In this document: positions 12,145 to 22,006 of the stretch, piece by piece | How the letters are laid out: each line of letters opens with the position of its first letter | Numbering within the stretch: the first letter of the stretch is position 1 | From: Vulcanimicrobiota bacterium | GTDB lineage: Bacteria; Vulcanimicrobiota; Vulcanimicrobiia; Vulcanimicrobiales; Vulcanimicrobiaceae | NCBI GenBank assembly: GCA_003151115.1 | Contig: PLWS01000007.1 | Span: forward strand, 1-64,000 | Direction: 5' to 3' | Length of the DNA: 64,000 nucleotides | Program-made: the position numbers and the translations under genes | The notes under the pieces: generated by a model | The model's database searches: none | The model's input: the letters and a program-made list of their open reading frames with translations, nothing else | Told to the model about the DNA's origin: nothing

Positions 12145-12645
12145 ATGAAACGATCAGGATCTCTGGTGCTCGCCGCGCTTGCTTGCTGCATGATCGCGGC
12201 GGCTCCGCGTGCTAGCGCGCCTCCGCCAATCGACGGCATCCGCTGCGAAGGCATGGAAGGCGCCGTCGTTCACATCCACCAGTATCTCGCGCTTTACGAC
12301 GGTTATCAGCGCGTTACGGTTCCGGCGCTGATCGGCATTCACGCCGAATGTCTCTACTGGCTGCACACGCATACCGCCGACGGATTGATCCACGACGAAG
12401 TTCCGATCCACAAGTTTTTTACGCTGGGTAATTTTTTCGACGTTTGGAGGCAGCCGCTGAACTGGTACCAAGCCGGCCCGTTGCGCGCGCGGCCCGGAAC
12501 GAAACTCAAGATCACCGTCGACGGGAAGCCGTTCAAAGGAAATCCGCGCAACATCGAGCTCGACAACCATACCGAGATCATCATAAAAAGTGGTCCACCC
12601 TACATCACGCACCCGCCCCATTACAACTGGGGCAATATGGGCTAG
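12145..12645 (+). CDS. Secreted protein of unknown function
   Basis: The 166-residue protein carries a signal peptide (MKRSGSLVLAALACCMIAAA, cleavage near ASA). The mature part is rich in His, Tyr and Trp: VVHIHQYLALYDG, ECLYWLHTHTADGLIHDEVP and TLGNFFDVWRQPLNW. It ends with LDNHTEIIIKSGPP. Clusters of His (HIH, HTHTxDGxIH) suggest metal binding in a cupredoxin-like or cupin-like fold, but I cannot assign a family. It probably shares a transcript with the CAP-domain gene and ends at a strong terminator. Confidence 0.65.
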   Translation: MKRSGSLVLAALACCMIAAAPRASAPPPIDGIRCEGMEGAVVHIHQYLALYDGYQRVTVPALIGIHAECLYWLHTHTADGLIHDEVPIHKFFTLGNFFDVWRQPLNWYQAGPLRARPGTKLKITVDGKPFKGNPRNIELDNHTEIIIKSGPPYITHPPHYNWGNMG

Positions 12646-12656
12646 CAAAAAGGAAG

Positions 12657-12676
12657 AGGGCCGCTTACGCGGCCCT
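12657..12676. terminator. Bidirectional terminator
   Basis: An 8-bp perfect stem AGGGCCGC/GCGGCCCT with a 4-base TTAC loop lies between convergent genes and is followed by TTTCCCT on the plus strand. Confidence 0.75.
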
Positions 12677-12703: not shown

Positions 12704-13717
12704 CTAGTGACACTTCTTGCGGAGCACCGGTTTGCCGCTTGTCGCAGAGGTCCCAACGATGTGATAGGGTCCGGTCGAAGCTCCGAGCACTGCCGTCTTA
12801 TACCAAACGCAGCGCCATTTTCCGACCGGCTGAATCGCGACCGGAAGAACACGCGTCGGCAGTGCCGCGATGCGGCGGCCGCTCGTGGGTCCGGTGGAAG
12901 CGCCGAGCACGTGCGTCGGTGCGCCGGCGGCGCCTCTTCCAACCGGCACAACGCCGGGCCGGAAGCCGCGCACTGTCGTACCGGCATTGGCGCTCCCGCC
13001 GCTACCGTTGCCGCTGTTGACTACGCCCGGCTGTGTGCCGCCGCTCGGGGCAGGAGCTGCGCTATTTGCGATGCCGCCGTGCAACTCGCGGGGCGAGACG
13101 CCACCGCCGGTCTCTTGCGCGATCTGTTCGCCTTTATGGCAACCGCACTTGACGTCCAGCTCCGCAACATCAACGTCCATCTTATGTTTATCGACATCGA
13201 GCTTGTGCTGATCGACGTCCGCCTCGGCCTTACGGCCTTTGGCTTTGTCGATGTCGAGCTGCTGACGGTCGCGGTCGCATTGCTGCCGATCGATGTCAAC
13301 TTTCGCTACGTCGGTATCGAAGTTGGCGAAGTCGTGTTTCTTGGCCCCGTTGGTGTCAACGTCTGCTTTGGCAATCTCCTCGCCTTTGTGGCATTTGCAC
13401 TTGACGTCTAGATTGGCCACATCCACGTCCATCTTAAGTTTATCGACGTCGAGCTTACGCTGGTCGCGGTCCGCCTCGGCTTTGTGGCCTCTGGCTTTGT
13501 CGATGTCGAGCTGTTGACGGTCGCGGTCGCATTGCTGCCGATCGATGTCCACCTTCGCCACATCGGTATCGAAGTTGGATTTGGCGACGCCGAAGTCGGC
13601 CTTTTTGCCCCGCTTGTCGATATCGGCTTTGGCGACATCGTTATCCATTTTATGCCTGTCGATATCCAGCTTGCGCCGATCGGCGTCCGCCTCGGCCGTG
13701 TTCCCATTGGCCTTATC
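12704..13717 (-). CDS. Asp-rich heptad-repeat protein, downstream part after in-frame TAA
   Basis: This is the same reading frame as 13718-14587, directly after a TAA codon; an internal ATG at 13648 could restart it (314 residues). The frame continues the seven-residue pattern hDxDxxx (VDIDRQQ, CDRDRQQ, LDIDKAR, VDKLKMD). It includes a tandem duplication of 84 codons (252 bp, copies near 13246-13497 and 13498-13749). Each unit ends in VKCxCHKGExIA, a possible metal or disulfide site. The C-terminus is Gly/Ser-rich, with LGASTGP repeats and several Cys. Either the TAA is read through, or this part is a dead remnant of a 627-residue protein. Confidence 0.6.
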   Translation of the reverse strand, partial: DKANGNTAEADADRRKLDIDRHKMDNDVAKADIDKRGKKADFGVAKSNFDTDVAKVDIDRQQCDRDRQQLDIDKARGHKAEADRDQRKLDVDKLKMDVDVANLDVKCKCHKGEEIAKADVDTNGAKKHDFANFDTDVAKVDIDRQQCDRDRQQLDIDKAKGRKAEADVDQHKLDVDKHKMDVDVAELDVKCGCHKGEQIAQETGGGVSPRELHGGIANSAAPAPSGGTQPGVVNSGNGSGGSANAGTTVRGFRPGVVPVGRGAAGAPTHVLGASTGPTSGRRIAALPTRVLPVAIQPVGKWRCVWYKTAVLGASTGPYHIVGTSATSGKPVLRKKCH

Positions 13718-14587
13718 TTAATCGAGCTTAGCTTGATCGCGATCGCATTGCGCGCGATCCGCGTCCGCCTTCGCTACGTCCGCATCGATCGCGACCTGTG
13801 AGGTATCTCCCTTGGCTCTATCCGCATTCAATTTGCGCAGATCGCTGTCGGCTTTGCGCCGATCGCTGTCGAGTTTCGCGACGTCGGATTTCTCTCCGAG
13901 CGCGAATTTATCGAACTGATGCTTTTTTTCGAGGTCGAGCGCGACGATTTTTCCGCTTGTTGCGCTAAGCGCCGTCACCTGGACGTTAGATCCCACCTTC
14001 ACGTGCAGGCGGTTCGCCGTTTCGCTGTCGAGCGTGATCAAGCGCGTTTGTCCGCTCTGATCCTGCAGCATGAAGGTATCGCCCGTGCGCGCGGTCACGC
14101 GCATATTGTCTTTCTCGCCGCGAGAACAGACGGCCGTGACCTGCTGACCGTTGGTCGTAAAGAAAATCAAATCACCGCGGCTTTGATGCGCCTTCAACGA
14201 TTCGGCCGCTGCCGATGAGATCGCGAACGTGCGGCTCGAACCGTTGCTCAGTTTGATGTTGACGGCAGCTTTCGCGTTGGCGGGCCCCGTTCCGTTGACG
14301 GTGCCTTCGAATTCGCTTCCTCCACTCCCGTCATCCGTACGGTTCCGCATCATACTGCGGTCGAAGTTACCAGGCGCGGTCTGGGGTTTTCCCATACCGC
14401 CGGGTCCGCGCGACGCAGAGCTGCTGGCGTTCTGTCCGGGCGCGGGCGCGGTTTGCGTCGTTGAGCTGTGTTTGTCGCCGTGATTGCCGCCTTTGTCGGC
14501 CAGTGCAATGCCCGTTGTGCATAGCAAGGCCGCACCTAAGAAGGCCGCTACTAGTTTCTGCGGTCGATACATGCCCTTTGTCTCCAT
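13718..14587 (-). CDS. Secreted Asp-rich heptad-repeat protein, upstream part
   Basis: The protein of 289 residues has a signal peptide ending near IALA-DK, then a low-complexity Ser/Gly/Pro segment. Two related beta-rich domains follow at about 95-160 and 165-225 (EFEGTVNGTGPANAKAAVNI; RVTARTGDTFMLQDQSGQTR), resembling DUF5666-like domains. From about 235 the Asp heptads begin (LDSDRRK, ADSDLRK, ADADRAQ, CDRDQAK). The frame stops at TAA 13718-13720 in the middle of the heptad array and resumes immediately beyond it with DKANGNTAEADADRRKLD. The heptads suggest an acidic coiled coil; cation binding is a guess. Confidence 0.7.
   Translation of the reverse strand: METKGMYRPQKLVAAFLGAALLCTTGIALADKGGNHGDKHSSTTQTAPAPGQNASSSASRGPGGMGKPQTAPGNFDRSMMRNRTDDGSGGSEFEGTVNGTGPANAKAAVNIKLSNGSSRTFAISSAAAESLKAHQSRGDLIFFTTNGQQVTAVCSRGEKDNMRVTARTGDTFMLQDQSGQTRLITLDSETANRLHVKVGSNVQVTALSATSGKIVALDLEKKHQFDKFALGEKSDVAKLDSDRRKADSDLRKLNADRAKGDTSQVAIDADVAKADADRAQCDRDQAKLD

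Positions 14588-19861: not shown

Positions 19862-22006
<2,145 letters not shown>

What the first reader, a model, noticed from the sequence alone, without database searches (positions are those of the whole stretch)
12704..14587. Secreted Asp-heptad repeat protein split by a single in-frame TAA
A 627-codon frame encodes a signal peptide, two small beta domains, and a long array of seven-residue units of the type hDxDxxx. These include a tandem 84-codon duplication with Cys/His pockets (VKCxCHKGE). One TAA (13718-13720) interrupts it in the heptad array; the frame and the heptads continue on both sides. I do not recognise this repeat type. The stop may be read through, may have split the gene into two proteins (internal ATG 13648), or may be a recent loss.
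Basis: partly seen in the sequence, partly recalled or inferred. Interest (0 to 1): 0.75.

Follow-up and report, generated by a model that had tools for sequence, protein, structure and literature searches.

The report
Interrupted secreted Asp-heptad protein, soil bacterium
A secreted, repeat-bearing protein of an uncultured Eremiobacterota bacterium is cut short in this one genome by a stop codon that four related species lack, which is probably a recent truncation or a consensus error; its charged seven-residue repeats look like an unusual Asp-based helical rod.

Summary
It encodes a signal peptide, two small OB-like β domains, about 250 residues of hDxDxxK heptads, two CxCHKGE motifs 84 codons apart, and a 71-residue C-terminal domain. 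One TAA (13720-13718) sits inside a perfect heptad. Four congeneric genomes have an uninterrupted orthologue (573-761 aa) at the same place after enolase; three of them align at the TAA column and carry V or I. The stop is private to this assembly. The part after the stop still shows protein-level selection: the C-terminal domain has dN/dS 0.11-0.22 against orthologues, and the duplication, wholly after the stop, has dN/dS 0.11. TAA is an ordinary terminator here and no ochre-suppressor tRNA was found. Best reading: a young truncation, or a consensus error, in a constrained, genus-restricted secreted protein whose middle part evolves by repeat swapping. Readthrough is not supported but not excluded. 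The heptads match no Pfam or NCBIfam model; helix-type ion-pair spacing, near-zero net charge and no DxDxDG motif make a charged helical rod likelier than a calcium-binding array. Modest interest.

The parts
12704..14572 (-). whole interrupted gene, from conserved start ATG 14572 to final stop (622 codons if the internal TAA is counted)
14498..14572 (-). signal peptide MYRPQKLVAAFLGAALLCTTGIALA
   Evidence: sequence, conserved in orthologues
13922..14323 (-). two small OB-like beta domains, DUF5666-like below cut-off
13160..13900 (-). array of hDxDxxK heptads, interrupted by short linkers
13718..13720 (-). in-frame TAA inside heptad LD*DKAN, private to this genome
13379..13573 (-). first copy of the G000-only duplication (65 aligned codons), ending in DVKCKCHKGE
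13127..13321 (-). second copy of the duplication, ending in DVKCGCHKGE
12707..12922 (-). conserved 71-residue C-terminal domain with two Cys, clear relatives only in the genus
12657..12676 (-). terminator-like hairpin followed by T run, after the final stop

Best explanation
This is a secreted, modular envelope or extracellular protein found in one Eremiobacterota genus: signal peptide, two OB-like beta domains, a long charged heptad array, and a conserved C-terminal domain (shown by sequence). The heptads (hDxDxxK) most likely form an extended, charge-stabilised helical rod that spaces the beta domains from the C-terminal domain (inferred). In this genome a TAA ends translation after residue 284. 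Most likely it is a young nonsense allele (inferred). The product would then be a 284-residue secreted protein with both beta domains and a short piece of rod, without the C-terminal domain (inferred). The DNA after the stop still looks selected because it was translated until recently.
For: Four congeneric genomes have an uninterrupted, syntenic copy. The C-terminal domain has dN/dS 0.11-0.22 for G000 pairs against 0.08-0.14 for the others, and the duplication wholly after the stop has dN 0.071, dS 0.634 over 65 codons, so the stop is recent relative to these changes. TAA is an ordinary terminator in this genome and no suppressor tRNA was seen. No other conserved window gene was clearly interrupted. 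The gene is dispensable or replaceable: absent in G001, replaced by a different repeat protein in G003. Helix: D to K/R at +3 (33 against 13.6), K/R to D at +4 (29 against 13.5), like charges avoided at +3 and +4; AlphaFold2 calls the array helical at moderate confidence. K to E(+4) pairs are reported as the more helix-stabilising orientation (PMC5347031).
Against: The TAA is three bases from the three alignable orthologue codons and at least two from every codon seen between two D in this array, so it is not a plain one-base change from a typical codon. Reads and further genomes of the species were not available. The full-length model is weak (mean pLDDT 40), the hydrophobic period is 2.33 rather than 3.5, and the charge test partly follows from the 7-residue spacing itself.
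Confidence: 0.6

Rival explanations
1. The TAA is an assembly or consensus error, or a minor strain variant, in what is probably a metagenome-derived contig; the real protein is full length.
For: All orthologues are open; the downstream part is still constrained; repeated arrays are prone to consensus mistakes.
Against: No other conserved gene of the window was clearly interrupted over about 15,000 aligned residues per relative, so the contig looks accurate; the codon differs from the orthologue codons at all three bases, more than a single-base error from a typical codon would give.
Confidence: 0.22
2. The TAA is read through, so that a small amount of full-length protein is made beside the truncated one.
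For: Frame, heptad register and selection continue across the stop.
Against: No orthologue has the stop; TAA, also as TAAG, ends ordinary genes here; no UUA anticodon among 43 tRNAs.
Confidence: 0.07
3. The stop has split the gene into two working proteins, the second starting at ATG 13648.
For: An in-frame ATG lies 24 codons after the stop with AGG a few bases upstream; the following 314 codons are open.
Against: The second product would have no signal peptide, although its conserved Cys-bearing end belongs to a secreted protein; the upstream AGG is a weak ribosome-binding match; no relative is split.
Confidence: 0.06
4. Independent of the stop: the heptad array is a calcium- or metal-binding repeat rather than a charged helical rod.
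For: 57 Asp in 252 residues with DxD spacing; Cys/His motifs nearby.
Against: Net charge only -10 in G000 and -3 to +1 in orthologues, no DxDxDG in any, ion pairs placed as in helices; no calcium-binding Pfam model matched.
Confidence: 0.12

Closest known systems
DUF5666 (Pfam PF18914)
   Same: Small beta domain in a secreted protein; 5 of 7 aligned beta regions touch this model
   Different: All matches are below the curated cut-off; tandem pair joined to a heptad array and another C-terminal domain
Single alpha-helix (SAH) charged repeats
   Same: Seven-residue, highly charged repeat with ion pairs at helix spacing; designed SAHs are also heptads (AEEEXXX, PMC5347031)
   Different: Built on Asp instead of Glu, with a hydrophobic residue at position 1 and secreted; helicity is predicted only
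Syntenic 1000-aa repeat protein of G003 (L052:3174-6173)
   Same: Same place between enolase and a CAP-domain gene; beta domains align (E 6e-8 for the single comparison)
   Different: About 42-residue Asn/Ala/Cys repeats and a CarboxypepD_reg-like end below cut-off; no Asp heptads and no C-terminal domain of this type
Calcium-binding Asp repeats (thrombospondin type 3, dockerin, RTX; from general knowledge)
   Same: Asp-rich and secreted
   Different: No DxDxDG, few Gly, nearly charge-balanced

Membership tests
DUF5666 (PF18914) | score above Pfam's curated cut-off (27 bits) | tested here: not met
   14.1-14.9 bits in the window protein, E 0.034-0.058
DUF5666 (PF18914) | small beta-barrel-like fold | tested here: inconclusive
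   beta model with pLDDT 74.9; OB-type matches at best E 3.6e-3 and TM 0.34
single alpha-helix domain | helix-type spacing of opposite charges | tested here: met
   +3 and +4 pairs enriched, like charges avoided; clear in four of five species, weaker at +3 in G005
single alpha-helix domain | rich in Glu, Arg and Lys | tested here: not met
   57 Asp and 7 Glu in the array
single alpha-helix domain | stable monomeric helix in solution | not testable with these tools
   only a moderate-confidence model
calcium-binding Asp repeat | DxDxDG-type loop | tested here: not met
   no occurrence in any of the five arrays
programmed stop readthrough | stop conserved among orthologues | tested here: not met
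   four orthologues have no stop
programmed stop readthrough | suppressor tRNA or reassigned TAA in the genome | tested here: not met
programmed stop readthrough | peptides from beyond the stop | not testable with these tools
   no proteome available

The most novel reading that the evidence does not exclude
The hDxDxxK array is an undescribed Asp-based charge-zipper helix, and the slot between enolase and the CAP gene is a hypervariable place where related soil bacteria swap the repeat section of a secreted protein (Asp heptads, Cys modules, Asn/Ala repeats) behind lasting OB-like N-terminal domains; the stop is one more step of this turnover.
Probability: 0.3. Interest if true: 0.45.

Novelty: new variant of a known kind. 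Interest (0 to 1): 0.3.

Why it matters
It would add an Asp-based, natural, secreted example to charged-helix repeats, which are described as rich in Glu, Arg and Lys (PMC5347031), and a case of fast module exchange in an envelope or extracellular protein of a little-studied phylum. The stop itself is of minor interest: a private truncation caught before the downstream sequence decayed, or an error.

Tried and rejected
Pfam and NCBIfam scans of both halves and of orthologues gave nothing above a curated cut-off. A PDB sequence search with the beta-domain profile gave nothing significant. Foldseek with the full-length model is meaningless because the model is weak. Searches of about 198 relatives for the C-terminal domain and the heptad array gave clear hits only in the genus; a few remote hits at E about 1e-4 to 1e-3 (G068, G140, G142, G143, G157) look like composition or repeat noise and were not followed. 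A genome-contig scan found the same four species, titled Candidatus Eremiobacterota. No paper was found on this repeat type or on the function of DUF5666. Weak sub-threshold Pfam matches in orthologues (for example AvrPto at E 0.1, Reovirus_M2 at E 0.0015) were taken as chance. Ordinary coiled coil: disfavoured by the 2.33-residue hydrophobic period. A read-level check and a search of metagenome contigs were not available.

Full report
What is there. The gene lies on the minus strand. The frame 14587→12704 has one internal stop, TAA at 13720-13718. The likely start is ATG 14572: the upstream stretch GGAGACAA(A)GG is conserved as a probable ribosome-binding site in relatives, and the 14587 ATG overlaps it. 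This gives 284 codons before the stop and 337 after it. The window is 62% G+C.

Anatomy. Residues 1-25 look like a signal peptide (by sequence). Residues 84-217 are two small β domains. Seven aligned sequences gave a fair model (pLDDT 74.9, pTM 0.69) whose best solved matches are OB-type proteins (ModG, EF-P/IF5A, S1; best E 3.6e-3, TM about 0.34). Pfam's DUF5666 is the nearest family but below its cut-off. Residues 225-471 are the heptads. Residues 389-398 and 473-482 are DVKCxCHKGE. Residues 551-622 are a conserved C-terminal domain without a family.

The heptads are real. D at lag 7 is 41 against 12.2 in shuffles for the whole array, 10 against 2.7 before the stop and 30 against 9.0 after it; none of 2000 shuffles reached the observed values. 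The register runs through the stop: LD*DKAN is a perfect heptad apart from the stop.

Orthologues. Of six congeneric genomes, four (G002, G004, G005, G006) have a full-length copy of 573-761 residues without a stop; it lies just downstream of enolase (read directly for G002, G005 and G006; the G004 contig ends before it). The records are titled Candidatus Eremiobacterota, and G006's is an isolate named palsa_1493. At the stop column three of them align without gaps and carry GTC, ATC, ATC; G005 is rearranged there. In G001 ABC-transporter genes follow enolase instead. In G003 the same slot holds a 1000-aa secreted protein whose β domains align with ours (E 6e-8 for that single comparison; a tblastn at E 0.01 did not recover it), but with different repeats and a CarboxypepD_reg-like end below cut-off. 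The four orthologues also carry 1-3 copies of a Cys module (GNPAFANQMAKDAANDASGHNPPGLPHECVNPAGHTRGFCKS), weakly related to other proteins across the family and missing from G000. The section between the β domains and the C-terminal domain therefore turns over quickly.

The stop is young or not real. The C-terminal domain has dN/dS 0.11-0.22 for G000 pairs and 0.08-0.14 for the other pairs, so relaxation is slight at most. The duplication, seen in G000 only and wholly after the stop, has dN 0.071 and dS 0.634 over 65 codons, so protein-level selection acted there for most of its history; gene conversion or codon bias could distort this. Against a plain one-base event, TAA is at least two changes from every codon seen between two D in the array and three from the orthologue codons. 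I have no explanation for this beyond an intermediate codon.

Readthrough. TAA ends 14 of 47 conserved genes in the window, 5 with the same following G. Rfam finds 43 tRNAs, and ARAGORN reads none with a UUA anticodon; one (C6:223072-223145) has an 8-base anticodon loop and is called only as 'gacg'. The orthologues have no stop, so there is no conserved recoding signal. Readthrough is not excluded, but nothing speaks for it.

Base rate. Window genes were compared with three relatives. The other flagged stops fall, on my reading, in antisense frames or upstream extensions, because another relative gives a clean alignment of the gene at the same place. I did not check each one separately.

What the array does. 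Asp/Glu to Lys/Arg pairs at +3 and Lys/Arg to Asp/Glu pairs at +4 are about twice expectation, and like charges at +3 and +4 are avoided, in G000, G006, G002 and G004; G005 shows the +4 pattern but +3 only weakly. Net charge lies between -10 and +1. AlphaFold2 calls the array helical with block pLDDT up to 75. K→E(+4) is reported as the more helix-stabilising orientation in short peptides (PMC5347031). This fits a charge-stabilised helical spacer. The hydrophobic period of 2.33 argues against an ordinary coiled coil. Because the charge pattern follows partly from the 7-residue spacing itself, it supports but does not prove a helix. No function has been measured for any part; a spacer in an envelope or extracellular protein is inference.

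Verdict. A real gene, a real stop in this sequence, and a genus-restricted repeat protein. Most likely a recent truncation (0.6), otherwise a consensus error (0.22). What novelty there is lies in the Asp-heptad type and the module turnover rather than in the stop.

Noticed in passing
window 21231-21301 (minus strand); also 19786, 29082, 30192: A dispersed repeat (ATGGTGAGCTTGTCGAACCACCC) occurs five times; two tandem copies are inserted in frame in the DNA ligase gene ligA as [15 protein letters not shown].
   Followed up: partly
G000:C6:223072-223145 (L111): A tRNA-like gene with an 8-base anticodon loop (ctgacgaa) that ARAGORN cannot assign; the best matches in other genomes are only about 77% identical over its length.
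   Followed up: partly
G000, whole genome: Among the 43 tRNAs found, no tRNA-Asp (GTC) and no tRNA-Leu (UAA) was read, perhaps because of assembly gaps or the search threshold.
   Followed up: no
L052:3174-6173 (minus strand): The same slot in G003 holds a 1000-aa secreted protein with several similar beta domains and about 42-residue Asn/Ala/Cys repeats (GNGTPPNNLANTQRTAAGNNALATAGANQNAAAGCVSINAGPC).
   Followed up: partly
L051:1867-6655: In G001 the slot after enolase holds a lipoprotein-like gene and ABC-transporter genes, and the next small secreted gene (window 12145-12642) seems broken there.
   Followed up: partly
L053-L072: A Cys module (HNPPGLPHECVNPAGHTRGFCKS) present in 1-3 copies in orthologues also has weak relatives in other proteins across the family; it is absent from G000.
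   Followed up: partly
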